The position numbers and the translations under genes were made by a program. The notes below the pieces were generated by a model. It saw only the letters and a program-made list of their open reading frames with translations, searched no databases and was not told the origin of the DNA. A stretch of 47,630 nucleotides of DNA from Elusimicrobiota bacterium (GTDB lineage: Bacteria; Elusimicrobiota; Elusimicrobia; Elusimicrobiales; UBA9959), in assembly GCA_012517285.1 (NCBI GenBank), contig JAAYVG010000002.1, positions 1 through 47,630 of the forward strand, given 5' to 3'. Below are positions 389-29,842 of the stretch, piece by piece. Numbering within the stretch: the first letter of the stretch is position 1; every line of letters starts with the position of its first letter.

Positions 389-2596
389 ATGAGATTATTA
401 GTAGTTTCAAACAGACTCCCTTTCTCTGTATTAAAGGAGAATGAAAATATATCTTTAAAACCGAGTTCAGGGGGGCTTGTTTCGGGTATAAGTTCATATT
501 TGGATTATATAAAAAATTCTCCAATATCCAACTTTGAATATCTATGGATAGGTTGGCCCGGTGCTTATATAGAAGAAAAACTTCAAGAAAATTTTTCTGA
601 CGAGGTATTGATCCAACACAATGTCGTTCCTGTTTTTGTCTCAGAAGAAGAGATGGATAAGTTTTATTTAGGATTTTGTAACTCCACTATATGGCCACTC
701 TTTCACTATTTTCCATCCTATGTGAAGTTTGATAATGATGAATGGAATGTTTATAAAAAAGTGAATGAATATTTTGCTGAAAAGATACTTGATGTAATAA
801 AAGATGGTGATGTTTTGTGGATTCATGATTATCATCTTATGCTTTTACCAGATATGATAAGAAAAAAAACAGATAAAGACATCAAGATAGGTTTTTTTCT
901 TCATATTCCTTTCCCTTCGTTTGAAATATACAGGATAATGCCAAGGCTATGGAGGCAGGAGATACTGGATGGAATTATGGGCTCTGATCTGGTAGGTTTT
1001 CATACACAGGAGTACACTCATTCATTTCTTAGAACAATACTAAGGATAAAGGGGTTATCACATAATTTAGGTGAGGTTGAATACGATAACAGAATAGTGA
1101 AGATAGACACCTTTCCTATGGGAATAGATTTTGATAAGTTTTATAACTCAACAAATAATAAAAAAACAATTAGAGAAAAAAATGAAATAAAAAATCAATT
1201 AAAAAATTTGAGAATAATTTTGTCTGTTGATAGACTTGATTATACAAAAGGCGTTTTAAACAGATTAAAAGGTTTTAAAAAATTTTTAAAAAGCAACCCT
1301 GATTATTTAGGTAAAGTTGTATTTATACTTATCATTGTGCCCTCAAGAATTGGGGTGGATAAGTATCAGGAGATGAAGGATAGTTTAGATAAAATGATAG
1401 GAGAGATAAATGGAGAGTTTGGAAATATAAACTGGCAACCCATCATATACCAGTACAGGCATATTCCATTTGAAAACCTTGTAGCACTTTATAATCTGGC
1501 AGATGTGGCATTGATAACACCATTAAGAGATGGTATGAATCTTGTTGCTAAGGAATATATAGCAGCTAAGGGAAAAGAAAAAAATGGTGTTTTAATATTA
1601 AGTGAGGTGGCTGGAGCAGCAAAGGAACTCTCTGAAGCATTATTAGTTAATCCAAATGATATAGATGAAATATCCAATAGCATAAAGATTGCCATTGAAA
1701 TGGATAACTCGTTAAAGATTGAAAAAATAGAAAACATGCAAAGAAGAATAAGAGATTATAATGTTTTAGAATGGGTCAAGGATTTTTTATTTTCACTTGA
1801 TAAGATAAAAGAGGAAAACAAGAAAAATGAGATAAAAATAATTTCTGATGATGATACGAAAAAGATATTAAAAGACTTTCAAAGATCACAAAACAGACTT
1901 ATAATGTTGGATTATGATGGAACGCTTGTTGATTTTAGATCATTGCCATATATGGCAGTTCCTGATAAAGATTTAATAGATATATTAGAGAAACTTTCTA
2001 AAAGAGCAAATTTAGTTATCTTAAGTGGCAGGAGGCTTGATTTTTTGGAAAAATATTTTGGGAGTATGGATATATCTCTCTCAGCTGAACATGGTGCTTT
2101 TATAAAAGAAAAAGGTACTGTATGGAATGTTATGTCTCACTCTGATGTAAATTGGAAAACTGAATTATTAACCATTCTTAAACATTATTCCAACAGGCTG
2201 CCAGGATCATATATAGAAGAAAAGACATTTTCTATATCCTTTCACTATAGGAATTGTGATCCTGAGATGTCAGATATAAGGGTGAAGGAGTTTATGGATG
2301 AATTGATAAATTATACATCCAATCTAAACCTTCAGATACTAAATGGTAATAAGGTTTTTGAAATAAGAAATTATGAGGTAAACAAGGCAACTGCTGCGGC
2401 TCATTTTATAGCTAAAGATAACTTTGATTTTATAATCTTTATAGGTGATGATTGGACCGATGAGGATGTCTTTAAACTCTTAAAGGATAAGAATGCATAT
2501 ACAATAAAAATCGGTTTGAGTTCATCTGCAGCGAAAAGAAATATTTTAAATATCAGCAAAGTAAGAAAATTGCTGAAGGTGTTGATTGATGAGTGA
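389..2596 (+). CDS. otsAB: Bifunctional trehalose-6-phosphate synthase/phosphatase (OtsA-OtsB fusion)
   Basis: A single 735-residue cytoplasmic protein joins two enzymes of the OtsAB route. Residues 1 to ~480 are a GT20 synthase (UDP-glucose + glucose-6-phosphate to trehalose-6-phosphate): N-terminal SNRLPFS and GGL loop, WIHDYHLMLLP, HIPFPS, RLDYTKG and the PLRDGMNLVAKEY donor-site motif. Residues ~495-735 are a HAD phosphatase that releases trehalose: DYDGT with nucleophile D508, LSGR, and GDDWTDEDVF near residue 686. Both halves keep their key motifs, so both activities are expected. The fusion order is the same as in many eukaryotic and some bacterial TPS/TPP proteins. The downstream gene overlaps its stop by 8 bases, implying co-translation with the rest of the trehalose block. 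The RBS upstream of ATG 389 is weak. Confidence 0.95.
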   Translation: MRLLVVSNRLPFSVLKENENISLKPSSGGLVSGISSYLDYIKNSPISNFEYLWIGWPGAYIEEKLQENFSDEVLIQHNVVPVFVSEEEMDKFYLGFCNSTIWPLFHYFPSYVKFDNDEWNVYKKVNEYFAEKILDVIKDGDVLWIHDYHLMLLPDMIRKKTDKDIKIGFFLHIPFPSFEIYRIMPRLWRQEILDGIMGSDLVGFHTQEYTHSFLRTILRIKGLSHNLGEVEYDNRIVKIDTFPMGIDFDKFYNSTNNKKTIREKNEIKNQLKNLRIILSVDRLDYTKGVLNRLKGFKKFLKSNPDYLGKVVFILIIVPSRIGVDKYQEMKDSLDKMIGEINGEFGNINWQPIIYQYRHIPFENLVALYNLADVALITPLRDGMNLVAKEYIAAKGKEKNGVLILSEVAGAAKELSEALLVNPNDIDEISNSIKIAIEMDNSLKIEKIENMQRRIRDYNVLEWVKDFLFSLDKIKEENKKNEIKIISDDDTKKILKDFQRSQNRLIMLDYDGTLVDFRSLPYMAVPDKDLIDILEKLSKRANLVILSGRRLDFLEKYFGSMDISLSAEHGAFIKEKGTVWNVMSHSDVNWKTELLTILKHYSNRLPGSYIEEKTFSISFHYRNCDPEMSDIRVKEFMDELINYTSNLNLQILNGNKVFEIRNYEVNKATAAAHFIAKDNFDFIIFIGDDWTDEDVFKLLKDKNAYTIKIGLSSSAAKRNILNISKVRKLLKVLIDE

Positions 2597-3227
2597 ATTT
2601 GACTTTAAAACAGAAATGCACCTAATAAAATTATTAGGGATTAAAGCAAGGAATATTGAAGAATTATATGAAAACATTCGTATTGTTCCTTTAAGTTCTA
2701 TATATTATCATACCCACAGATTTTTAAAACAGCACCACTTCCTATCACCAGAGCCTCCAAATGATTTTGCATACTGGATAAAAAATGCTCTCAATATAAA
2801 AAAGTTAGCTGAGGCTGTATCAAGCATAGATACCGTTAGCTTTGATGGATTAAAAGAATTAAGGAATGCTATTCTCGCAACTATTTATAACTATCTAAAG
2901 AATGTTAAAACCATAAATAACTGCGAGAGGGGAGAAGAGTTTTATTTTATGAGTTGCCAAACATTTGTTTTTTCAACAGGTAAGAAGGCTAATAACATCA
3001 ATGAGTTTTATGAGATAATGAAAGATATAGATATTAATTCCATCTACTTTCATATCTTTGAATCAAGATTAAGACTAAAGAAGAAAGAAAATGATTTTCA
3101 GAACTGGTTTAATGAAATAGGTGAGGCAAGGATTGCTATGAAGTTATCAAACTTTGACCCATACACTATGACACTTGATAACTTAAGAAAAAAAATCTTA
3201 AGTATAATTGAGGATACTTTAAAATGA
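2589..3227 (+). CDS. DUF5752-like protein with an internal duplication, between otsAB and treT
   Basis: Cytoplasmic protein of 212 residues with no known enzymatic motif. It resembles a domain of unknown function (DUF5752, as I recall it) found beside sugar glycosyltransferases. The protein is a tandem duplication: residues ~5-104 and ~118-212 share the order F-x-F, G-x-KA-x-NI-x-E-x-YE, SIYYH/SIYFH, NDFAYW/NDFQNW, and a final LRxxI helix. The first copy keeps two His in YYHTHR that the second lacks. ATG 2589 lies inside the end of otsAB (8-base overlap), and its TGA overlaps the ATG of treT, so the three genes are probably translated together. This points to a role in trehalose or NDP-glucose metabolism, perhaps a regulator or scaffold, but that is inference. 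ATG 2589 is preferred over the TTG just before it. Confidence 0.7.
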   Translation: MSEFDFKTEMHLIKLLGIKARNIEELYENIRIVPLSSIYYHTHRFLKQHHFLSPEPPNDFAYWIKNALNIKKLAEAVSSIDTVSFDGLKELRNAILATIYNYLKNVKTINNCERGEEFYFMSCQTFVFSTGKKANNINEFYEIMKDIDINSIYFHIFESRLRLKKKENDFQNWFNEIGEARIAMKLSNFDPYTMTLDNLRKKILSIIEDTLK

Positions 3228-4444
3228 TAAATCTTGAGAATTACAGGAGGATTGTTGGCAATAACGTAATGGATGAGCTTTACATTCTCGGTGAAAAATT
3301 AAAGGGTAAAAAAATATTGAACATAAATTCGACTTCTGTTGGCGGAGGTGTGGCTGAGATACTAAACAAGTTAGTACCATTGTTAAATCAAGTAGGGGTC
3401 TGTGCTGAGTGGAATGTTATAAAGGGAGATAGTAAGTTTTTTACCATAACCAAAAAGATTCATAATGCATTACACGGAAAAAATCAAGAACTATCAGTTG
3501 AAGAAATGGATTATTTTATAGATATAAACAAACAAAATATGAAGGGGATAGATCTTTCATCTGATATTGTTTATGTTCATGATCCTCAACCAATATGCCT
3601 TGTCGAAAAAAAGTCAGATTTTAAAAACAACTGGATATGGAGGTGTCATATTGATATAACAGAGGCTCAGGAAGATGTTTATGAATTTTTGAGGGGTTAT
3701 ATCTCTCTTTATGATAGCTGCGTGTTTTCAGCTCCGGCATTTTCTAAAAAAGATATCACAATACCACAGATTATGATTCCACCATCTATAGATCCTTTAA
3801 GTGATAAGAATAAGGATTTGCCAGAAGGAGAGATTAAAAAAATATTTGAAAAATATAATATAGATATGACAAGACCTGTTGTAACACAAATTTCGAGATT
3901 TGATTATTTAAAAGATCCTTGCGGTGTTATAGAGGTTTATAAACTTGTGAAAAAGCATACCGACTGTCAACTTGTTTTAGCTGGTGGTGGGGCAACTGAT
4001 GACCCTGAGGGAATGATGGTTTATGAAGAGGTGTTAAATAAAGCAAAGGGTGATACTGACATACATATTTTATTACTCCCTCAGGATGATATATTGATAA
4101 ATGCATTACAAAGGGGTAGTACAATTATAATTCAAAAATCAATAAAGGAAGGGTTCGGGCTTACTGTTTCTGAAGCATTATGGAAAGAAAAACCAGTGAT
4201 TGCATCGGCAGTTGGAGGGATACCATTACAGATAACGCATAAATACAGTGGACTCTTAACATATTCAATAGAGGGAACTGCATACTATTTAAAACAGCTT
4301 TTAGATAATCCTGATTATGCAGCTAAACTTGCAAAAAATGGCAGGGAACATGTTAAAAATAATTTTCTTATAACAAGGCATTTAAGAGACTATTTATTGC
4401 TATTCTTGTCTGTTTATTACAAGGATGATATTATTTACTTTTAA
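3224..4444 (+). CDS. treT: Trehalose glycosyltransferring synthase (GT4)
   Basis: 406-residue cytoplasmic GT-B glycosyltransferase, the usual length for TreT, which reversibly makes trehalose from NDP-glucose and glucose. The N-terminal domain has the TreT-like NSTSVGGGVAEIL loop and VYVHDPQP; the C-terminal domain has QISRFDYLKDP, and EGFGLTVSEALW starting at E309, followed by PVIASAVGGIP, the nucleotide-sugar site of GT4 enzymes. Its ATG overlaps the stop of the DUF5752-like gene (ATGA). Its presence next to OtsAB gives this organism two ways to form trehalose; TreT can also run in reverse to recover NDP-glucose. The alternative, a generic GT4 sucrose/trehalose-phosphorylase-like enzyme, is less likely given the context. 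Confidence 0.88.
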   Translation: MINLENYRRIVGNNVMDELYILGEKLKGKKILNINSTSVGGGVAEILNKLVPLLNQVGVCAEWNVIKGDSKFFTITKKIHNALHGKNQELSVEEMDYFIDINKQNMKGIDLSSDIVYVHDPQPICLVEKKSDFKNNWIWRCHIDITEAQEDVYEFLRGYISLYDSCVFSAPAFSKKDITIPQIMIPPSIDPLSDKNKDLPEGEIKKIFEKYNIDMTRPVVTQISRFDYLKDPCGVIEVYKLVKKHTDCQLVLAGGGATDDPEGMMVYEEVLNKAKGDTDIHILLLPQDDILINALQRGSTIIIQKSIKEGFGLTVSEALWKEKPVIASAVGGIPLQITHKYSGLLTYSIEGTAYYLKQLLDNPDYAAKLAKNGREHVKNNFLITRHLRDYLLLFLSVYYKDDIIYF

Positions 4445-4483: not shown

Positions 4484-5374
4484 ATGTCTTTAAATCATAA
4501 GCCTAAAACTGTTTTTATAACAGGTTTTCAAAAAAATTGTGGGAAAACTACATTCCTTAACTATCTCCTTTCAAAGTGTCCACAGGGGAAAAATGTTTTC
4601 TGTGCATCTGTCGGGGTTGATAATATAAAACCTGATTTTTTAAATACTGATTTTAAACCACAGCTAAAGATTAAAAAGGGATGGAGTGTTCTTACAAATA
4701 CTGAATTTTTAAAGACTCTTTTAGCACCATACAAAATAATAGACATAATAGACTCTGATGTTATGGGAGCAAAGCCTTGCATCATATCACCCCTTATAGA
4801 CTCATACATAAGACTTTCCAGTTGCGGGACAAACTCACAGATATACAATCTGATAACTGAAAAGGCAAAAAAATCCGATATTGTTTATATTGATGGAGCC
4901 TTTGACAGGATAACCCAGCTTTCACTTTTTGATGATAGTGAATTTTTTTATGTTTTTAAGGTTTCCACATCTAATATTGAAACAGTCATTGAAAAGATAC
5001 TTTATTTGGAGAGTATGAGAGATATTACGGTTAAAATTGAAAACAGGAGTTTTATAAATAATATGTCAGATGACATTGTTGTTCACGGCGATACTCTTTA
5101 TCTCAAAGGTGCACTAACATATTCAAAGATTGATATGTTTGATGAAAAAATAAAGAAAATTGTTATCTCTGATTTTACAAAGATTTTTTTGAGCTACAGG
5201 GACTGGATTAAGTTCACTACAAAATATAAAGTATTTTTTACATCAGAGTTTAATTTTTGTGGCTATGTTATAAATTTATACGATATTAAAGGTGATGATT
5301 TTAGTAAAAGATTTGACAAAAAAGTATATAATAGATTTATATATAACCCATATGAATATAGAAAAATTCTGTGA
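4484..5374 (+). CDS. kamB: KamB-like P-loop protein (lysine 5,6-aminomutase accessory protein)
   Basis: 296-residue protein with an N-terminal Walker A (GFQKNCGKT, residues 14-22) and a later YIDGAFDR segment that may serve as Walker B. The assignment as KamB rests mainly on position: it directly precedes a MutS-like gene and the two aminomutase subunits, in the kamB-kamC-kamD-kamE order known from lysine-fermenting bacteria. KamB and KamC are annotated by family as subunits of a reactivating factor for the B12 aminomutase; that role is by analogy with other B12-enzyme reactivases, not visible here. No Shine-Dalgarno is visible before ATG 4484; a TATAAA at 4470-4475 lies only 8 bases upstream, so if that is a promoter the message could be nearly leaderless. 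The next gene starts within its last 23 bases. Confidence 0.75.
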   Translation: MSLNHKPKTVFITGFQKNCGKTTFLNYLLSKCPQGKNVFCASVGVDNIKPDFLNTDFKPQLKIKKGWSVLTNTEFLKTLLAPYKIIDIIDSDVMGAKPCIISPLIDSYIRLSSCGTNSQIYNLITEKAKKSDIVYIDGAFDRITQLSLFDDSEFFYVFKVSTSNIETVIEKILYLESMRDITVKIENRSFINNMSDDIVVHGDTLYLKGALTYSKIDMFDEKIKKIVISDFTKIFLSYRDWIKFTTKYKVFFTSEFNFCGYVINLYDIKGDDFSKRFDKKVYNRFIYNPYEYRKIL

Positions 5375-6947
5375 ATTTGATTACATAAGCAAAAATTTTT
5401 TGCCGCATACTCCTTATGGTAAGGTGTATAAAGAAAATCTTAAGCTTATAACAGATAAAAAGAAATTAGAAAAAAAATATTCTGCTATAGATATATTTGC
5501 TGATATAAGAAAGAATAAAAGATTTGATTATGACAAGATAAAATATCACCTCAAAAATATTCCATATATAAACCCAGCAAAAGAAGTTTCAGATATAACA
5601 GATTTATTTTTTTATAAAAAATTTTTGAATAACTATCATTCCATATATAAAATAATGAATAAAAAAACAAAAGACTTTTTTAATATTATATGGAAGTATG
5701 ATGAAGCATACAATCTTCTAAACATTGATGGATATTCTGATACATTCTATATAAGCGATAAGTATGATAAACGCCTTGCTGAATTAAGGAAATCATTGAA
5801 TGATATATCAAAAAAGATTGAAGAAAAGAAAAAGACTTTTTTTGAGCTTATAAAGAAAGAAACACAGCTTGATATTGATTCTGATTTTGTTATTGTTGAA
5901 ACACAAAAGTTAAATGATAGTTTTAATAATTTTTTTAATGTTGAGATGTATGATAGCTCAAAAGTTGTTTTAAAGCCAAAATATCCTATGGATTACATCT
6001 CAACTATTCAGGAAAAGGAAAGATTAATAGCTGATGAAAAAAATATAGAAAATGAGGTCGTTGAAAAGCTTGTTAAGGAAATTGAAAAGATAAGATCGGA
6101 TATAAGGCTGTTGATAAATTCAGTTCTTGATATTGATATAGCGGTTTCATCATTAGAACTTGCTATAAAATTTAATTTAAAAAGACCTGTTTTTAATACC
6201 ACAAGAATAAGCTTTAAAAATGGATATTTTCTTCCATTAAAGGATGAGCTTGATACTATAAAAATTCCGTACACTCCGTTAAACTTTACATTTGACAAAC
6301 GACTTAATGTCATAAGAGGATCAAATATGGGGGGGAAAACTGTTGCTCTTAAAACACTTGCACTATCGCAACTTATGGCACAGTACGGCTTTTTTGTTTC
6401 TGCAGAAAGATTTGAAACTTTAATCTTTGATGATATATCATCAGTTATGGTTGAGAGTGATATAAAGGGCTTAAGCAGCTTTGCATATGAGATATATAAG
6501 TTTGTTAATATATACAACAGCATATTGGATAAAAAGGTTCTTTTGATAATGGATGAGTTTGCAAGAACCACTGGGGTTTCTGAAGCTACAGCCATTGTTA
6601 ACTCAATCCTATCAAAATTCAACAACATGAAAAATATATATTTCTTTATGGCAACACATCTCCACAGCATAGAAAGATTAAAATCACTTGATATACTTAG
6701 GATGAAAGGTTTTGATAAAAACAGCTATCTAAAATATTTTGATTCAAAAACGATAACAGATATAAAAGAAAAGATAAAACTTATAAACAAGTTTATGGAT
6801 TATGAGCTGATAAGAGCAAGTAATACAGATTATATATCAAGCGATGCCCTTGATATATCATATATACTCGGTATAGATAAAGAGATTTATGAGAGTTCTA
6901 AAAAATACATGGAGGAAAGAAATGAAAACCAAGAAACTAAAAAATAG
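5352..6947 (+). CDS. kamC: KamC-like MutS-family ATPase (lysine 5,6-aminomutase accessory protein)
   Basis: 531-residue protein whose C-terminal third is a MutS-type ABC ATPase: Walker A GSNMGGKT (residues 323-330), Walker B LLIMDEFARTT, and FMATHLHSIE. The middle is a charged helical region like the MutS core, but there is no mismatch-recognition domain, so this is not a DNA repair MutS. A MutS-like protein next to the aminomutase subunits is the hallmark of KamC (and of the equivalent orf at ornithine 4,5-aminomutase loci), thought to help reactivate the B12 enzyme. ATG 5352 is preferred to the in-frame ATG at 5292 because it shortens the overlap with kamB to 23 bases. It overlaps kamD by 26 bases. 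Confidence 0.78.
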   Translation: MNIEKFCEFDYISKNFLPHTPYGKVYKENLKLITDKKKLEKKYSAIDIFADIRKNKRFDYDKIKYHLKNIPYINPAKEVSDITDLFFYKKFLNNYHSIYKIMNKKTKDFFNIIWKYDEAYNLLNIDGYSDTFYISDKYDKRLAELRKSLNDISKKIEEKKKTFFELIKKETQLDIDSDFVIVETQKLNDSFNNFFNVEMYDSSKVVLKPKYPMDYISTIQEKERLIADEKNIENEVVEKLVKEIEKIRSDIRLLINSVLDIDIAVSSLELAIKFNLKRPVFNTTRISFKNGYFLPLKDELDTIKIPYTPLNFTFDKRLNVIRGSNMGGKTVALKTLALSQLMAQYGFFVSAERFETLIFDDISSVMVESDIKGLSSFAYEIYKFVNIYNSILDKKVLLIMDEFARTTGVSEATAIVNSILSKFNNMKNIYFFMATHLHSIERLKSLDILRMKGFDKNSYLKYFDSKTITDIKEKIKLINKFMDYELIRASNTDYISSDALDISYILGIDKEIYESSKKYMEERNENQETKK

Positions 6948-8511
6948 CAAAACTCCACTTCTTTTTCTTGATAGAAAAAAAATAGATATGGCAAGAAAGC
7001 TAAGTGATGATATAACAGCTGATGTATCAAAATATATAGACCTTCATACAACAGCCACAGTTGAGAGAGCAACACTAAGGATGTTTGGTTGTGATGGAGC
7101 AAGCGTTGATAGGGTTCCTGTTCCAAACATAATAGCTGATAAACTAAAGGATAAAACAGGGGAAGGGTTGAGCAAGTATTATCTAAATGCTCTTGTAAAA
7201 ACAGGAAAAAGTGTTGAGGAACTGAACAATGAAATCGCTAATGGATTTGATATATCCAAAATTGAATTAGGTGATTTTAAAAAAATAAAATCTAAGGGAG
7301 AGGAACTTGTAGAAAAGATTGGAGAAAAGATAGATAAAAATGTGAATTATAGAAATAAAAAACTGGAAGAATATAAAGCGAATGAAAAAAAACCATGGCT
7401 TTATGTCATAGTTGCAACCGGAAATATTTATGAAGACGTAAAGCAAGCAAAGGCTGCGGCTTTGGAGGGAGCTGATATAATAGCGGTGATAAGAACCACT
7501 GCACAAAGCCTTCTTGACTATGTTCCTTACGGAGCAACGACTGAAGGCTTTGGTGGGACATATGCCACTCAGGAAAATTTTAAAATAATGAGAAAGGCTC
7601 TTGATGAGGTCAGTGATAAAACAAAAAGGTATATAAGACTTGTTAACTATTGTTCAGGACTTTGTATGCCAGAGATTGCTGCTATGGGAGCAATTGAAAG
7701 GCTTGATATGATGCTAAATGACTCAATGTATGGAATACTTTTTAGAGATATAAACATGTATAGAACGTTTACAGATCAGTATTTCTCAAGAATGATAAAC
7801 TCTGCTGCAGAGATCATTATAAACACAGGTGAGGATAATTATCTGACCACATCGGATGCTGTTGAAAATGCCCACACAGTTTTAACATCCCAGTTTATAA
7901 ATGAAAGTTTTGCAAAAAGAGCAGGTATGAAGAAAGAGCTTATGGGTTTAGGCCATGCGTTTGAGATGGACCCTGATATAAAAAACGGATTTCTTCTTGA
8001 GTTTTCACAGGCACTTATGGCAAGAGAGATATTTCCAGAGCATCCATTAAAATACATGCCACCAACAAAGTTTATGACAGGCGATATCTTTAAAGGATAT
8101 GCTATGAACACGCTTTTTAATTTTACAGCAAAGGCAACAAATCAGACTATACAGCTTCTGGGCATGCTAACAGAGGCAATACATACCCCTTATCTTCATG
8201 ACAGGTACTTAGCAATAGAAAATGCAAAGTATGTACACAACAACATCTATGACTTTATAAATGAGATAACTTTTAAAAAGGATGGAATAATTGTAAAAAG
8301 AGCTAAGATTGTTCTTGATGAAGCCCTTGATATGCTAAAAGAGATAAAGAAAATAAGTCTTTTTGATGCTATTGAAAAAGGTATGTTCGCTGATATAAAA
8401 AGGCCTAAGGATGGTGGAAAGGGGTTTGATGGAGTTTTTGAAAAAACTGGTGATTACTACAATCCTGTGGAAGATTTTTTAAAGAAAAAACTTAATATTA
8501 TCAATAATTGA
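6922..8511 (+). CDS. kamD: Lysine 5,6-aminomutase, alpha (large) subunit
   Basis: 529 residues, close to the ~516 of characterised KamD. With KamE it forms the adenosylcobalamin- and PLP-dependent enzyme that moves the terminal amino group of D-lysine or L-beta-lysine to C5. The large subunit forms the TIM-barrel; recognisable stretches include the N-terminal helix with HTTATVERATLRM, the TTAQSLLDYVPYGATTEGF region and the VNYCSGLCMPE loop. ATG 6922 is chosen because GGAGG (6911-6915) sits 6 bases before it; an in-frame ATG at 6889 lies further inside kamC without an RBS. KamE follows after 15 bases with its own strong RBS. D-ornithine aminomutase is excluded because that enzyme has a different subunit split (small OraS, very large OraE). 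Confidence 0.93.
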   Translation: MKTKKLKNSKTPLLFLDRKKIDMARKLSDDITADVSKYIDLHTTATVERATLRMFGCDGASVDRVPVPNIIADKLKDKTGEGLSKYYLNALVKTGKSVEELNNEIANGFDISKIELGDFKKIKSKGEELVEKIGEKIDKNVNYRNKKLEEYKANEKKPWLYVIVATGNIYEDVKQAKAAALEGADIIAVIRTTAQSLLDYVPYGATTEGFGGTYATQENFKIMRKALDEVSDKTKRYIRLVNYCSGLCMPEIAAMGAIERLDMMLNDSMYGILFRDINMYRTFTDQYFSRMINSAAEIIINTGEDNYLTTSDAVENAHTVLTSQFINESFAKRAGMKKELMGLGHAFEMDPDIKNGFLLEFSQALMAREIFPEHPLKYMPPTKFMTGDIFKGYAMNTLFNFTAKATNQTIQLLGMLTEAIHTPYLHDRYLAIENAKYVHNNIYDFINEITFKKDGIIVKRAKIVLDEALDMLKEIKKISLFDAIEKGMFADIKRPKDGGKGFDGVFEKTGDYYNPVEDFLKKKLNIINN

Positions 8512-8526
8512 TTTTGGAGGATAATT

Positions 8527-9261
8527 ATGAAATTGGTTAAAGCATATGGTGATACATTAAACGATGGTGCTGTCCAGCTTTCTTTCACACTGCCAGTTCC
8601 ATATGGTGGAAAAGCAAAAGAAGCTGCAAAAATTTATGTTGAAAAATTAGGATTTAAAACGACTGATATAGTTCATATGGCAGAGCTTTCTGATGATTTT
8701 ACATTTTTTATTGCCTACGCAAAAACTGATATTTCAATAGATTATGATTCTGTTGAATACACTCCAGCTATTGATAAGTCAATGAGTATGGATGAAGTAA
8801 ACCAGTTTATAAAGGAAAAAATAAAAAGGAAAATTGTTATTGTTGGAGCAACTACAGGTTTTGATGCACACACTGTTGGAATAGATGCAATAATGAATAT
8901 GAAGGGATATAATCATCACTTTGGACTTGAAAGATATCCTATGATTGAGGCAATAAACTTAGGAGCACAGGTTCCAAATGAAAGGCTTATAGAAACTGCA
9001 AAAAAAGTCAATGCTGATGCTATACTCATATCACAGATTGTTACTCAGAAGGATACACACATCAAAAATCTTACAAATTTTATAGAACTTCTTGAAGCTG
9101 AAAAATTAAGGGACAGGTTTATAGTTGTTATAGGAGGTCCGAGAATAAACAACAAACTGGCTGTAGAGTTAGGTTTTGATGCTGGTTTTGGTTCTGGCAC
9201 ATACGCTGATGATGTAGCAACATATATAGTTAGAAAGATATATGAGAAAATGATAAAATGA
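8527..9261 (+). CDS. kamE: Lysine 5,6-aminomutase, beta (B12/PLP-binding) subunit
   Basis: 244-residue subunit carrying the cofactors. The cobalamin 'base-off/His-on' motif DxHxxG is present as DAHTVG, with lower axial ligand H115. Exactly eleven residues later is K126 (in MNMKGYN), the spacing of His133 and the PLP-binding Lys144 in the characterised enzyme. The Rossmann-like B12 domain continues with VIGGPRINNKLAVELGFDAGFG. All catalytic features are intact, so the mutase is probably functional. A strong GGAGG precedes ATG 8527. Together with kamD this is the most secure pathway marker in the operon. Confidence 0.95.
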   Translation: MKLVKAYGDTLNDGAVQLSFTLPVPYGGKAKEAAKIYVEKLGFKTTDIVHMAELSDDFTFFIAYAKTDISIDYDSVEYTPAIDKSMSMDEVNQFIKEKIKRKIVIVGATTGFDAHTVGIDAIMNMKGYNHHFGLERYPMIEAINLGAQVPNERLIETAKKVNADAILISQIVTQKDTHIKNLTNFIELLEAEKLRDRFIVVIGGPRINNKLAVELGFDAGFGSGTYADDVATYIVRKIYEKMIK

Positions 9262-23406: not shown

Positions 23407-24040
23407 TATAGCAAAAGAATGGATTTTAAACCAAGCTAATATGAGGTGAGGTTTAACCAAGAAAAGTAAGGTTGGACCTGTTGCTGAATTAATAAGAAAA
23501 TGTGCTCCTAAAACCGTTGAGGAATGGGAAAAATTTTATTTGGAAAATGCTTATCCGAAACAACAGTTGGAACAACTTGGTAAAACTTTATTTATAAAAG
23601 TCACTGATGTCTGTAAGGCCGAAATAGAAGGTGTTACAGAAGAGGATTGTATAAATTTTATTTACAACTTGCTCATCAATAGAACATTTGACGGCCACCA
23701 ATCAGAAATTCAAACAATTTACGGACAACTTGAAAAGATTCTTGGTGTAAAAATAGAACCTGCTCCTGATGAATGGGATAGAGGATATAATGTTGATTAT
23801 TTTATTAAAGTTAACGATAAGTATATTGGCCTTCAGGTAAAACCAGCGGGTTACGAATACATTACCCAGATAATCAATGAAAGAGAATAACAGAAAAAGA
23901 CGCATGAAAACTTTACCTCAAAATTTGGTGGAAAAGTATTTTATATTATTTCAATAACTGAAGGCAAAAATAAAATAATCCATAATCCCAAAGTAATTGA
24001 TGAGATAAAGGAAGAAATCGAAAGATTGAAAAAGGGATAA
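23402..24040 (+). pseudogene. MjaI-family type II restriction endonuclease, pseudogene
   Basis: One reading frame of about 210 codons is broken by two stops: TGA at 23447-23449, where homologues would have Trp (ANMR-W-GL), and TAA at 23888-23890 (INERE-stop-QKKTHENF). Between and after them the sequence reads as a continuous protein: KVGPVAELIRKC, TVEEWEKFYLENAYPK, EEDCINFIYNLLINRTFDG, WDRGYNVDYFIKVNDKYIGL, and FGGKVFYIISITEGK. The segment VDYFIKVNDKYIGLQVKP has the D-x(n)-Q/E-x-K pattern of PD-(D/E)XK nucleases. I recognise the pattern of the MjaI family (CTAG-type enzymes), from memory. No clear start codon remains. It is read right after the methyltransferase remnant, so this is a dead restriction-modification pair. 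Confidence 0.65.
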
Positions 24041-25294: not shown

Positions 25295-27661
25295 ATGAAG
25301 ATTATTTTACTTTTATTATCTATAGCTTCTAATTCATGGGCAAGTGAGGCCAACCTTGTTATACCTGATCTCAGAAATGTCAGCTTTGGTTCGTTTAATG
25401 GCCACAGTCTTCTTGTCTGGGGGATACTCGTATGCGTGCTCGGTATAGTTTTTGGGCTTTATCACTTTTCAAAAGTTAAAAAATTACCTGTTCACAGATC
25501 AATGCTTGAGGTTTCAGAGCTTATATATGAGACCTGCAAAACATATTTATTTACTCAGGGAAAATTTCTTTTTATATTGTGGGTTTTTATCGCAGTGATA
25601 ATACTTTTTTATTTTGGATATCTTTTAAACTTTACTGCGGGTAAACTTTTCATAATACTTCTTTTTAGCGTAATTGGAATACTTGGTTCATACAGTGTGG
25701 CATGGTTTGGTATGAGGTTAAACACATATGCAAACTCAAGAACAGCTTTTTCAGTGTTGAAGGGTTATCCATATCCTGCTATGGATATACCTCTTAGTTC
25801 TGGAATAAGCATAGGAACTGTGCTAATAAGTATTGAGCTTATAATAATGCTTTTCATACTGCTTTTTATTCCTGGAGAATACTCTGGACCATGTTTTATA
25901 GGATTTGCTATAGGAGAATCTCTCGGTGCTGCAGCGCTCAGAATAGCTGGTGGCATATTTACTAAGATTGCAGACATCGGCTCTGATCTTATGAAGATAG
26001 TTTTTAAAATAAAGGAGGATGATGCAAGAAACCCTGGTGTTATAGCAGACTGCACCGGAGATAATGCAGGAGACTCTGTTGGACCTACAGCTGACGGTTT
26101 TGAAACGTATGGGGTTACAGGCGTAGCGCTTATAACCTTTATAGTTTTAGCAATAAAAGATCCTGTTATACAGATACAGCTTCTGGTATGGATATTTGTG
26201 ATGCGTGTTGCTATGATTGTAACAAGCATTGTCTCATACTGGCTAAACAAGACTTATTTTAAGGCAAAGTATCAAAATGAAAAAAAGTTTAACTTTGAAA
26301 CACCGCTAACATCACTTGTATGGATTACATCAATAATATCAATAGCAATGACTTATTTGCTGAGCTACCTTATAATACCATGCATAAACGGTGATACAAC
26401 ATACTGGTATAAGCTTGCAACAATAATAACATGTGGAACCCTTGCTGCAGCGATAATACCTGAGTTTGTCAAGATATTTACATCAACAAAATCAAAGCAT
26501 GTAAAAGAGGTTTTAAATGCTTCTAAGGAGGGTGGAGCATCTCTTAATATACTTTCAGGATTTGTGGCAGGCAACTTTTCAGCATACTGGCTTGGTATGA
26601 TCATAGTTTTATTGATGGGTATTGCATATTATGTATCATCATTCGGTCTAAGCGTTATAATGATAAATCCTGCGATCTTTGCCTTTGGACTTGTTGCGTT
26701 TGGTTTTCTCGGTATGGGACCAGTTACAATTGCTGTGGACTCATATGGTCCTGTCACAGATAACGCACAGTCCATATTTGAACTTTCAACGATAGAAACT
26801 ATCCCGGGTGTAAAAGAAGATATAAAAAAAGAGTTTGGCTTTGATCCTGATTTCAATGCCAAGAATTATCTTGAAGAAAATGATGGAGCAGGTAATACCT
26901 TTAAAGCAACCGCAAAGCCTGTTTTGATAGGTACAGCTGTTGTGGGTGCAACAACACTGATATTCTCAATAATACAGGTTTTAAGAATTAAATATGGTGA
27001 TGCGAGTGCTATTGAGGGTCTTTCAATATTAAATCCGCTCTTTCTTTTAGGGATAATACTCGGTGGTGCAATGATATACTGGTTCAGCGGTGCATCAAAT
27101 CAGGCGGTTACCACCGGAGCTTATAGAGCAACAGAGTTCATAAAGAACAATATTAAACTGGAAGGGGTAACAAAGGCAAGCGTTAGTGATTCTAAAAAAG
27201 TTGTTGAGATATGCACACAGTACGCTCAAAAGGGAATGTTTAATATATTTATAGCAGTATTTTTTGCAACCCTCGCCTTTGCTTGTTTAAACCATTATCT
27301 TTTCATAGGATACCTCATATCAATAGCCCTCTTCGGTCTTTATCAGGCTATATTTATGGCAAACGCTGGCGGCGCATGGGATAATGCAAAGAAACTTGTT
27401 GAGACAGAGCTTGATATGAAAGGAACAGCCTTACATGATGCAACGGTTGTCGGTGATACTGTTGGAGATCCATTTAAGGACACAGCATCTGTTTCAATGA
27501 ATCCTATAATAAAATTCACCACATTATTTGGTCTTTTAGCAGTTGAGCTTGCAATAGAGCTATCAACAAATGTAAGAATAACTGCTTTTATAATATTCTT
27601 CATAATATCTGTTATTTTTGTATGGAGAAGCTTTTATAAGATGAGAATTAAAGAAGATTAA
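25295..27661 (+). CDS. hppA: Membrane-bound pyrophosphatase (H+- or Na+-pumping), divergent type
   Basis: 788-residue polytopic protein (about 15-16 helices) that couples pyrophosphate hydrolysis to ion pumping across the inner membrane. Active-site segments are present: DIGSDLMK (227-234), EDDARNP, GDNAGDSVGPTADGFETYGVTG, MGPVTIAVDSYGPVTDNAQ, ANAGGAWDNAKK and GDTVGDPFKDT. Family-conserved GNTxK reads GNTFKA (533-538); Lys rather than Ala there marks K+-independent enzymes. Several usual residues differ: DxGxDLVGKVE is DIGSDLMKIVF, and EDDPRNP is EDDARNP. This points to a divergent subfamily, so the pumped ion is uncertain. ATG 25295 follows AGGAGG (25285-25290). An N-terminal hydrophobic segment ending at ASEA may be a signal or first helix. 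Confidence 0.92.
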   Translation: MKIILLLLSIASNSWASEANLVIPDLRNVSFGSFNGHSLLVWGILVCVLGIVFGLYHFSKVKKLPVHRSMLEVSELIYETCKTYLFTQGKFLFILWVFIAVIILFYFGYLLNFTAGKLFIILLFSVIGILGSYSVAWFGMRLNTYANSRTAFSVLKGYPYPAMDIPLSSGISIGTVLISIELIIMLFILLFIPGEYSGPCFIGFAIGESLGAAALRIAGGIFTKIADIGSDLMKIVFKIKEDDARNPGVIADCTGDNAGDSVGPTADGFETYGVTGVALITFIVLAIKDPVIQIQLLVWIFVMRVAMIVTSIVSYWLNKTYFKAKYQNEKKFNFETPLTSLVWITSIISIAMTYLLSYLIIPCINGDTTYWYKLATIITCGTLAAAIIPEFVKIFTSTKSKHVKEVLNASKEGGASLNILSGFVAGNFSAYWLGMIIVLLMGIAYYVSSFGLSVIMINPAIFAFGLVAFGFLGMGPVTIAVDSYGPVTDNAQSIFELSTIETIPGVKEDIKKEFGFDPDFNAKNYLEENDGAGNTFKATAKPVLIGTAVVGATTLIFSIIQVLRIKYGDASAIEGLSILNPLFLLGIILGGAMIYWFSGASNQAVTTGAYRATEFIKNNIKLEGVTKASVSDSKKVVEICTQYAQKGMFNIFIAVFFATLAFACLNHYLFIGYLISIALFGLYQAIFMANAGGAWDNAKKLVETELDMKGTALHDATVVGDTVGDPFKDTASVSMNPIIKFTTLFGLLAVELAIELSTNVRITAFIIFFIISVIFVWRSFYKMRIKED

Positions 27662-27681: not shown

Positions 27682-29103
27682 ATGATATATATTATTTTAG
27701 CTGCAATTGTTTTATTGTCTATCTTTTTTATATTCAATTTCAAGGGAATAAATAAATATCAAAAAAATAATACAGGAAGAATCATTCAAAGGCTCTACTA
27801 TGATGATATAAAACCATTATTAATAATACACATCCTTTTTTTAATCCCTGTTTTTTTAATAAGCAGAAAGGCAGCCTTTGGTTTTATCTGTGGAAATATA
27901 TTTTCACTTTTTTTAGTCCTCATTGATATTCGAGTGGATTACTTTGTAATACAACACTATCAGGATGAGAACAAACTTTACATCAAAAATATATTTGAAA
28001 GCATAAAGCTATTAATCTATTTATTTACAAATTTTATTTTCTATCTTTTATATTTAATATTTTCTAACTCAATAGATTATGGTATGATCTTTGCAGGGAT
28101 GATTTTCTCAGCATTTTCTGTTTATATATGTAAAGCAGCAAAATCAAAAAAGATAATAAATCATATAAATCTATCGTATTTTTCGGTAATGATAGCTTCA
28201 TCCTCACTCCTCTTTATTAAATTTGCTAATATCAACCAGATAAAACTTTTAATCCTTATTTATACATCATTTATATTCTCATATTTAATCAATTCTTTAA
28301 TGAAAGATAAGATTGCTTCAATAAAGAACGAGGCTATCAGAAACAATATAATTTTTATTATCTCATACATAATCATTTCCCTTCTTGCCTTCACCATCCA
28401 TCATATTGATATGATTTTATATATATCACATATACTTTTTTTTATAGTCATATATATATTCACTATTGGAAAAGAGAAATCATCATCATATCAGACATTA
28501 AAACTATTCATACTCGCCGTAATAATAAAATTTATATCAAGATTGTTTAAATCTGAAGGTATGGATTATCATTTGTTTTTTGGATTTTTGACAGCATCCA
28601 CTCTTCCTGTGATATTTAATTATTTAAAGACTGTTCAGTTTAATTTTATTTTAAAAATCAAAGATATTGATAGCGACAAGGAACTTGAATTTAATTTATA
28701 TTCATTAAAACTTTCACTGCTATTTATTATTATTTTATTTTATCTATCATTCATCTTTGCATATGATTCTATGAACAGATACTATGGATACTCTGATATA
28801 TTTGATGCTTTTGTCCTCATGATTCCAATTGGCATATTCTATATATATGAATTATTTGGCGATAAGATGATTGATATAAATGGCAAACTTTCATTAAATC
28901 TGATATTTAATATTGCCTTTGCAGTCTTTTGCTTTTCATTTTTAATTGTTGCTATATCATATATCTCAACAATGGGAATTACTAATTTAACGACATCAAT
29001 TCTGCTTTTTAGCTTTTTAACACTGTTTTTTTCAAAAACATACTACTCATACGCGATATCACTTCTATATCTATCATCTCTTTACATAATAATTTATGTT
29101 TGA
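27682..29103 (+). CDS. Polytopic membrane protein, possibly a degenerate HppA paralogue
   Basis: 473 residues, almost wholly hydrophobic, ~13 predicted helices, no recognised catalytic motif. It starts 20 bases after hppA and overlaps the next gene by 8. Several segments occur in the same order as in membrane pyrophosphatases: residues 30-85 (NTGRIIQRLYYDDIKPL, then AAFGFICGNIFSLF and IDIRV, cf. the EGAxAFLxRQY and GxxxSxxxGxxGM regions), 299-312 (FFGFLTASTLPVIF, cf. LIGGALPFLF), and a later GYSDIFDAFVLMIP segment where HppA has its last Gly-rich helix before AGGAWDN. None of the Asp-rich pyrophosphate-binding loops is kept. I infer an inactive paralogue or partner of HppA; otherwise it is an orphan membrane protein. 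Confidence 0.6.
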   Translation: MIYIILAAIVLLSIFFIFNFKGINKYQKNNTGRIIQRLYYDDIKPLLIIHILFLIPVFLISRKAAFGFICGNIFSLFLVLIDIRVDYFVIQHYQDENKLYIKNIFESIKLLIYLFTNFIFYLLYLIFSNSIDYGMIFAGMIFSAFSVYICKAAKSKKIINHINLSYFSVMIASSSLLFIKFANINQIKLLILIYTSFIFSYLINSLMKDKIASIKNEAIRNNIIFIISYIIISLLAFTIHHIDMILYISHILFFIVIYIFTIGKEKSSSYQTLKLFILAVIIKFISRLFKSEGMDYHLFFGFLTASTLPVIFNYLKTVQFNFILKIKDIDSDKELEFNLYSLKLSLLFIIILFYLSFIFAYDSMNRYYGYSDIFDAFVLMIPIGIFYIYELFGDKMIDINGKLSLNLIFNIAFAVFCFSFLIVAISYISTMGITNLTTSILLFSFLTLFFSKTYYSYAISLLYLSSLYIIIYV

Positions 29104-29842
29104 ACTAAAAAAGATTATTTCATCGTTTCTAACATTCCCAGGACTTTTTATATCTTTAAGCATTTTTTTATCAGTTTATTATTTGATAAAAAAGAATAAA
29201 AAAAATTTTAAGATCTTTTTGATGATTGCCGTTATTGTTTATATCACTTCGATAGATTTCTTTTTTAACTACTTGATATGTAGAAGCGAAAGAAAAATAA
29301 ACGCAACAGCAAAAATAGATGGTGATGTCATAGTAGTTTTAAGTGCAGGCAACACATCGTTATCAGATACTCTGACAGGATGCGAATCACTTTCAGAACA
29401 ATCTAACTCAAGGCTCTTCAAGGCATATCAGATACACAGAAAAACATACCTTCCTCTTATTGTGACAGGGGGAATAATAGATAATTATGCATCTGATGCC
29501 GATATATCTAAAAAAATTCTTATTTCACTCGGAGTAAATGCAAAAGATATATTTTTGGAAAACAAATCTATGGATACATATCAAAATGCTCTTTACTCAA
29601 AAATGATATCAGATCAAAACAACTTTAAGAAGCCTATCATAATAACTGAAGCTATACATATACCGAGGAGCATATATCTCCTTAAAAAGGCTGGGTTTAA
29701 CGATGTTTCATACTATCCATCATCATATATCTGCAATGGTAATATGGGCTTTATGGATTTTCTACCAAACAGCTATTACAACCAAAACAAATATTTACAC
29801 GAGCTATTAGGAATAATTTATTACAGGATTATAAATTTATAA
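29096..29842 (+). CDS. SanA/ElyC/YdcF-like DUF218 membrane protein
   Basis: 248 residues. Two N-terminal hydrophobic segments (LTFPGLFISLSIFLSVYYLI and IFLMIAVIVYITSIDFFFNYL) anchor it in the inner membrane. The rest is the DUF218 Rossmann-like domain: DVIVVLSAGN, SNSRLFKAYQIHR, LIVTGG, ENKSMDTYQNALYSK, IIITEAIHIPRS. Members such as SanA and ElyC influence envelope or lipid-carrier homeostasis. It overlaps the upstream membrane-protein gene by 8 bases, so the three genes from hppA form a likely operon. Confidence 0.85.
   Translation: MFELKKIISSFLTFPGLFISLSIFLSVYYLIKKNKKNFKIFLMIAVIVYITSIDFFFNYLICRSERKINATAKIDGDVIVVLSAGNTSLSDTLTGCESLSEQSNSRLFKAYQIHRKTYLPLIVTGGIIDNYASDADISKKILISLGVNAKDIFLENKSMDTYQNALYSKMISDQNNFKKPIIITEAIHIPRSIYLLKKAGFNDVSYYPSSYICNGNMGFMDFLPNSYYNQNKYLHELLGIIYYRIINL

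What the first reader, a model, noticed from the sequence alone, without database searches (positions are those of the whole stretch)
27682..29103. Possible catalytically dead paralogue of membrane pyrophosphatase behind hppA
The 473-residue polytopic protein shows HppA-like segments in the right order (first RQY/GxxxS helices, LIGGALPFLF-like helix, last Gly-rich helix) but none of the Asp-rich pyrophosphate loops. It is 20 bases after hppA and probably co-translated with the next gene. It could be a regulatory or heterodimer subunit; membrane PPases are normally homodimers.
Basis: inference. Interest (0 to 1): 0.6.

Follow-up and report, generated by a model that had tools for sequence, protein, structure and literature searches.

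The report
Dead pyrophosphatase twin beside active pump
Next to the gene for a pyrophosphate-driven ion pump, some Elusimicrobiota bacteria carry a second, catalytically dead copy of the pump, and the gene in this window is probably a very worn member of that lineage; this matters because these pumps are thought to work only as pairs of identical subunits.

Summary
An intact 473-aa polytopic ORF lies 20 bases after an intact hppA and overlaps the next gene (DUF218/ElyC-like) by 8 bases. Only one homologue exists in 341 Elusimicrobiota genomes: 37% identical, same genus, same operon. No library profile matches either protein.

The interpretation gained unexpected support from relatives. Five genomes of the same family have, in exactly this slot, a second full-length membrane pyrophosphatase (PF03030, E 1e-19 to 1e-107; 616-709 aa) that keeps only 5-10 of 35 invariant charged/Asn residues. 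These paralogues are monophyletic, nest among the class's conventional HppAs, and are under purifying selection (dN/dS about 0.35).

For the window gene itself the link is probable, not proven. For it: same slot; predicted 16 TM with both ends outside, as in mPPases; an in-register N-terminal HMM match to HppA (0 of 300 shuffles reach it); helices matching in order (modest). Against: global alignment does not beat shuffles, hhalign finds nothing, AlphaFold2 failed (pLDDT 42-46).

Best reading: a retained, fast-evolving non-catalytic mPPase relative, most likely an accessory or partner subunit of HppA. Partnership is inference. I found no description of such dead tandem mPPases in the literature held.

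The parts
25295..27661 (+). hppA: intact membrane pyrophosphatase of the divergent group (788 aa from this ATG; 808 aa from TTG 25235), with Lys in the GNTFKATAK motif (K+-independent type by the established rule)
   Evidence: PF03030 E=2.9e-185; NCBIfam NF001950 1388 bits; all 35 invariant charged/Asn columns located in it
27682..29103 (+). the 473-aa polytopic protein: predicted 16 TM, both termini outside, no catalytic motif; probable degenerate mPPase relative
27715..27936 (+). TM1-TM3 region of the 473-aa protein, the only stretch with a significant residue-level match to HppA (TM1, RQY-like loop, TM2, F-x-x-G-x-x-x-S helix 3); ends approximate
   Evidence: HMM matches 14.3 and 13.7 bits to HppA N-termini of G332 and G241, in register; 0/300 shuffles reach 14.3
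28762..28806 (+). loop TM12-13 (YDSMNRYYGYSDIFD), predicted extracytoplasmic, the best conserved loop of more than six residues between the two homologues (11/15)
29096..29842 (+). DUF218 / ElyC-like gene, overlapping the 473-aa ORF by 8 bases; follows hppA (directly or after the middle gene) in most family genomes examined
   Evidence: PF02698 E=4e-25; NF007794 ElyC E=4e-15, below its cut-off; synteny

Best explanation
The 473-aa gene is the most degenerate known member of a tandem, non-catalytic membrane-pyrophosphatase lineage that sits between hppA and the ElyC-like gene in one Elusimicrobiota family. An ancestor of the family placed a conventional HppA behind its divergent hppA; that copy lost its PPi site but kept the 16-helix membrane body, was lost in many species, and in this genus also shed its cytoplasmic catalytic loops. 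Most likely mechanism (inferred): the dead protein is made with HppA from one transcript, sits beside it in the membrane and modulates it, either as a heterodimer partner at the usual dimer interface (half-dead pump) or as a separate accessory subunit. Shown: dead paralogues in the slot, purifying selection, operon order, the 16-TM both-ends-out prediction. Inferred: common descent of the 473-aa protein with them, physical partnership, regulatory effect.
For: Slot: five genomes (G003, G005, G014, G024, G029) have a PF03030 paralogue exactly between hppA and DUF218; the window and its sister have the 473/497-aa gene there. Death of the recognised paralogues: 5-10 of 35 invariant D/E/K/R/N residues kept while still matching Tm-PPase 4AV3 at E=2.8e-69 as a profile. 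They form one group nested among conventional HppAs, 100/100. On the HppA tree carriers lie on both sides of the family, G005 on the window's side, so an ancestral presence with repeated loss is plausible; sister species G009/G029 differ. Selection: dN/dS of middle genes 0.37, 0.34, 0.33 in three species pairs. For the 473-aa protein: 16 TM, N-out/C-out predicted for both homologues separately, K+R 27/28 in cytosolic versus 5/4 in outside loops; blind HMM search of 341 genomes gives as its best two hits outside the genus the N-termini of two HppAs, in register, 0/300 shuffles as good; helix-order test with strict register: Z 3.2 against dead paralogues + active HppAs, 0/100 shuffles as good, correct diagonal far above shifted ones.
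Against: Global profile alignment of the pair to mPPase profiles is no better than shuffles (Z -0.7 to 1.0); hhalign finds nothing; BLASTP against own HppA E=0.66. The helix-order signal varies with settings (calibrated z 0.8-2.8), and an earlier version used too loose a window. AlphaFold2 pLDDT 42 (2 sequences) and 46 (10 sequences with mPPases); Foldseek of neither model finds mPPase. Nearest genera to the window (g2, g13, g10) lack a recognised paralogue (G002's slot is cut off by a contig end), so descent needs many losses. No HppA residue tracks the presence of the middle gene after correction. Nothing shows physical interaction.
Confidence: 0.55

Rival explanations
1. Unrelated lineage-specific polytopic membrane protein (for example an envelope or polysaccharide protein going with the ElyC-like gene) that happens to occupy the same labile slot; the mPPase likeness is chance among hydrophobic helices.
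For: No profile match at any E tried; global alignment null; the 473-aa gene overlaps the DUF218 gene, not hppA; other unrelated genes also enter the slot in some genomes (G013, G004).
Against: 16 TM with both termini outside is uncommon: among 28 polytopic proteins of this genome scored with the same predictor only this one was 16 TM and N-out. N-terminal in-register HMM match, 0/300 shuffles. Same slot as five certain dead mPPases.
Confidence: 0.3
2. Decaying pseudogene of a second pyrophosphatase, with no function.
For: Fast divergence (35.6% identity where HppA is 88.7%); frequent loss in relatives, even between sister species; catalytic residues gone.
Against: Open reading frame intact in both species and in all five recognised paralogues; dN/dS 0.33-0.37 in three independent pairs; conserved overlaps and short gaps; a strongly conserved outside loop.
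Confidence: 0.05
3. A non-catalytic mPPase derivative with its own transport job (channel or carrier uncoupled from PPi), not a partner of HppA.
For: Keeps 16 predicted membrane helices while losing cytoplasmic loops; the dead paralogues keep helices 7 and 13 best, not only interface helices 10, 13, 15.
Against: Always found behind hppA, never elsewhere in 341 genomes, which favours a role tied to HppA.
Confidence: 0.1

Closest known systems
Membrane-bound pyrophosphatase (HppA, PF03030; Tm-PPase 4AV3, Vr-PPase 4A01)
   Same: 16 TM with both termini outside (predicted), N-terminal TM1-3 match, location beside hppA; the five recognised relatives are full-length homologues (E 2.8e-69 to 4AV3 as a profile)
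   Different: No catalytic motif, no Pfam match, about 200 residues shorter through loss of cytoplasmic loops; the recognised relatives keep 5-10 of 35 invariant charged/Asn residues
Divergent group of mPPases (NCBIfam NF001950; compare the evolutionarily divergent, Na+-regulated H+-PPases of Luoto et al. 2015, cited in PMC10897367)
   Same: This is the intact neighbour in the operon
   Different: The dead paralogues branch with conventional HppAs, not with this group, so they are not recent duplicates of the neighbour
Asymmetric mPPase homodimers with half-of-the-sites reactivity (PMC10897367, PMC8469034, PMC6530997)
   Same: A dimer with one working site would be the natural, genetically fixed form of the functional asymmetry proposed there
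   Different: The known enzymes are homodimers; no heterodimer or dead subunit was found in the papers searched
Pseudoenzyme partner subunits in ion pumps and transporters (general class)
   Same: A catalytically dead homologue kept next to its active relative
   Different: I found no described case for membrane pyrophosphatases in the library held

Membership tests
Membrane pyrophosphatase (PF03030), the 473-aa protein | Sequence profile match over the gathering score | tested here: not met
   No Pfam family up to E=10 for either homologue
Membrane pyrophosphatase (PF03030), the 473-aa protein | PPi/Mg-binding Asp/Lys motifs on the cytoplasmic loops | tested here: not met
   None in the sequence; the loops are shortened to 5-31 residues
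Membrane pyrophosphatase (PF03030), the 473-aa protein | 16 TM helices, both termini extracytoplasmic | tested here: met
   Own topology calculation, both homologues separately; prediction only
Membrane pyrophosphatase (PF03030), the 473-aa protein | Homologous residue pattern along the helices | tested here: inconclusive
   TM1-3 match, 0/300 shuffles; helix order calibrated z 0.8-2.8; global alignment null
Membrane pyrophosphatase (PF03030), the 473-aa protein | mPPase fold | tested here: inconclusive
   AlphaFold2 pLDDT 42 and 46, Foldseek meaningless
Membrane pyrophosphatase (PF03030), the five tandem paralogues | Profile match and full-length homology | tested here: met
   PF03030 E 1.3e-19 to 1.6e-107; 4AV3 E=2.8e-69 as a profile
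Membrane pyrophosphatase (PF03030), the five tandem paralogues | Catalytic residues | tested here: not met
   5-10 of 35 invariant D/E/K/R/N columns kept; of 24 D/K only 2-6
Heterodimeric mPPase | Physical association with HppA | not testable with these tools
   Only operon linkage available

The most novel reading that the evidence does not exclude
In a family of Elusimicrobiota the pyrophosphate pump works as an obligate or facultative heterodimer: an active divergent HppA paired with a dead, conventional-type HppA relative, of which the window's 473-aa protein is a minimal form reduced to the membrane body.
Probability: 0.3. Interest if true: 0.85.

Novelty: new variant of a known kind. Interest (0 to 1): 0.6.

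Why it matters
Membrane pyrophosphatases are described as homodimers whose two sites influence each other, and whether that asymmetry is part of the pumping cycle is an active question (PMC10897367). A natural operon that supplies one active and one dead subunit would be a genetic experiment done by evolution: it could show whether a dimer with a single site can pump, and which helices carry inter-subunit communication. Independently of the window protein, the five recognisable dead tandem paralogues are, as far as the searched literature shows, an undescribed kind of mPPase gene, under selection though catalytically dead.

Tried and rejected
Direct BLASTP and hhalign of the 473-aa protein against HppA or the dead paralogues: no signal. 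Global profile alignment with shuffle controls: null. AlphaFold2 on the two homologues, then on an alignment with mPPases: low confidence; Foldseek hits to unrelated proteins. Wider search for relatives: none beyond the sister species in two genome-contig scans, 341 phylum genomes and viral contigs. Duplicate of the neighbouring hppA: rejected for the recognised paralogues, which branch with conventional HppAs. HppA residues co-varying with presence of the partner: best p=5e-4 over thousands of tests, not significant. My first helix-order test let the window run into the next helix; repeated with strict register, the signal stayed but was smaller, and the special closeness to the G005 paralogue seen largely went away.

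Full report
WHAT IS THERE. The ORF at 27682-29103 (+) is intact and encodes 473 aa. It begins 20 bases after a complete hppA (PF03030 E=2.9e-185; NCBIfam NF001950 1388 bits) and overlaps by 8 bases an ORF for a DUF218/ElyC-like protein (PF02698 E=4e-25). Searching 341 genomes of the phylum and the genome-contig collection gives one homologue, in a genome of the same genus (G001 = DYIF01000007.1, titled Elusimicrobium minutum isolate TT109_36_37): 497 aa, 37% identity in alignment (35.6% in a second computation), same three-gene order with gaps of 40 and -14 bases. The neighbouring HppA is 88.7% identical between the two species, the DUF218 protein 50.8%. So the middle gene is real, under selection (dN/dS 0.33; synonymous sites near saturation) and evolves fast.

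A SERIES OF DEAD PYROPHOSPHATASES IN THE SAME SLOT. A PF03030 search of relatives showed that five genomes of the same GTDB family carry a second, divergent PF03030 gene next to hppA. Reading out the loci placed all five (616-709 aa) exactly between hppA and the DUF218 gene, where the 473-aa gene lies in the window. In most of the remaining family genomes examined the DUF218 gene follows hppA without such a gene. The paralogues are full-length mPPases (hhalign to active HppA E=7e-44 over 652 columns; profile match to Tm-PPase 4AV3 E=2.8e-69) but keep only 5-10 of 35 D/E/K/R/N columns invariant in 42 active-type HppAs, 2-6 of 24 for Asp and Lys alone. PF03030 scores fall from 361 bits (G014) to 71 bits (G029). 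The dN/dS of the pairs G003/G014 and G024/G029 is 0.37 and 0.34, against about 0.1 for their hppA: relaxed but clearly selected. They form one group nested among conventional, active HppAs of the same class, and are therefore not duplicates of the divergent hppA beside them. On the HppA tree carriers lie on both sides of the family, with G005 on the window's side; of the sister species G009 and G029 only one has it. Ancestral presence with frequent loss is the simplest reading, but horizontal exchange is not excluded.

IS THE 473-aa PROTEIN ONE OF THEM? For: (1) the slot. (2) Topology: a simple dynamic-programming predictor gives 16 TM, N-out, C-out for both homologues and for their alignment, with K+R 27/28 in inside loops and 5/4 in outside loops. 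That is the mPPase topology (established knowledge from the solved structures). The same predictor gives 16-18 TM, N-out for conventional HppAs. Among 28 polytopic proteins of this genome scored, no other was 16 TM and N-out. (3) In a blind search of 341 genomes with the two-sequence HMM, the best two hits outside the genus (E 0.0022 and 0.0027) were the N-termini of two HppA genes, in register. Block-preserving shuffles never reached that score, 0/300. The two HppAs are related to each other, so this counts as about one observation. (4) A helix-by-helix test with strict register puts the correct diagonal far above shifted ones: Z 3.2 against dead paralogues plus active HppAs (0/100 shuffles as good) and 3.2 against dead paralogues alone (1/150); calibrated z ranges 0.8-2.8 over settings.

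Against: no profile match, no hhalign signal, global alignment equal to shuffles, and uninformative structure predictions even with mPPases in the alignment. I put common descent at about 0.65-0.7. By the membership table the protein cannot be filed as a membrane pyrophosphatase; it may be derived from one.

MECHANISM. Shown: co-directional genes with tiny gaps or overlaps, selection, loss of catalysis in the recognised paralogues, occurrence only behind hppA. Inferred: that the dead protein assembles with HppA. Known mPPases are homodimers with the interface on helices 10, 13 and 15 and with half-of-the-sites behaviour (PMC10897367). In the dead paralogues helices 7 and 13 are best kept (62% and 53% identity to the nearest active HppAs; helix means range 20-62%), which is compatible with a kept interface but not specific to it. 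In the window pair the best kept loop of useful length is the outside loop 12-13. No HppA residue tracks presence of the partner. A heterodimer, an accessory subunit, or an independent transport role all remain open; I favour a partner of HppA because the gene is found nowhere else.

LITERATURE. Searches for heterodimer, pseudoenzyme or inactive paralogue together with membrane pyrophosphatase found no such case. The library holds open-licence papers only.

VERDICT.

Noticed in passing
L035, L037, L045, L055, L059 (G003, G005, G014, G024, G029): Five tandem catalytically dead but selected PF03030 paralogues between hppA and a DUF218 gene; the strongest part of this finding, though outside the window.
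   Followed up: yes
window 5292-9261: MutS-domain-V protein followed by both subunits of a D-lysine 5,6- / ornithine 4,5-aminomutase (PF09043, PF16554 + B12-binding), then aminotransferase-like and thiolase-like ORFs: looks like an amino acid fermentation cluster.
   Followed up: no
window 23540-23890: 116-aa ORF matching the MjaI restriction endonuclease family (PF09568, profile positions 46-146 of 164), apparently a truncated remnant near an SNase-like ORF.
   Followed up: no
window 389-4444: Trehalose gene group: an OtsA/OtsB-like fusion ORF by its sequence, a DUF5752 protein, and a TreT-type trehalose synthase (DUF5752 and TreT by Pfam).
   Followed up: no
L044 (G013), L036 (G004): The slot behind hppA is labile: in G013 a 651-aa polytopic ORF directly follows hppA, in G004 a 197-aa membrane ORF lies there.
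   Followed up: no
L056 (G025): hppA is split into two ORFs (334 and 489 aa) 97 bases apart: frameshift or assembly error.
   Followed up: no
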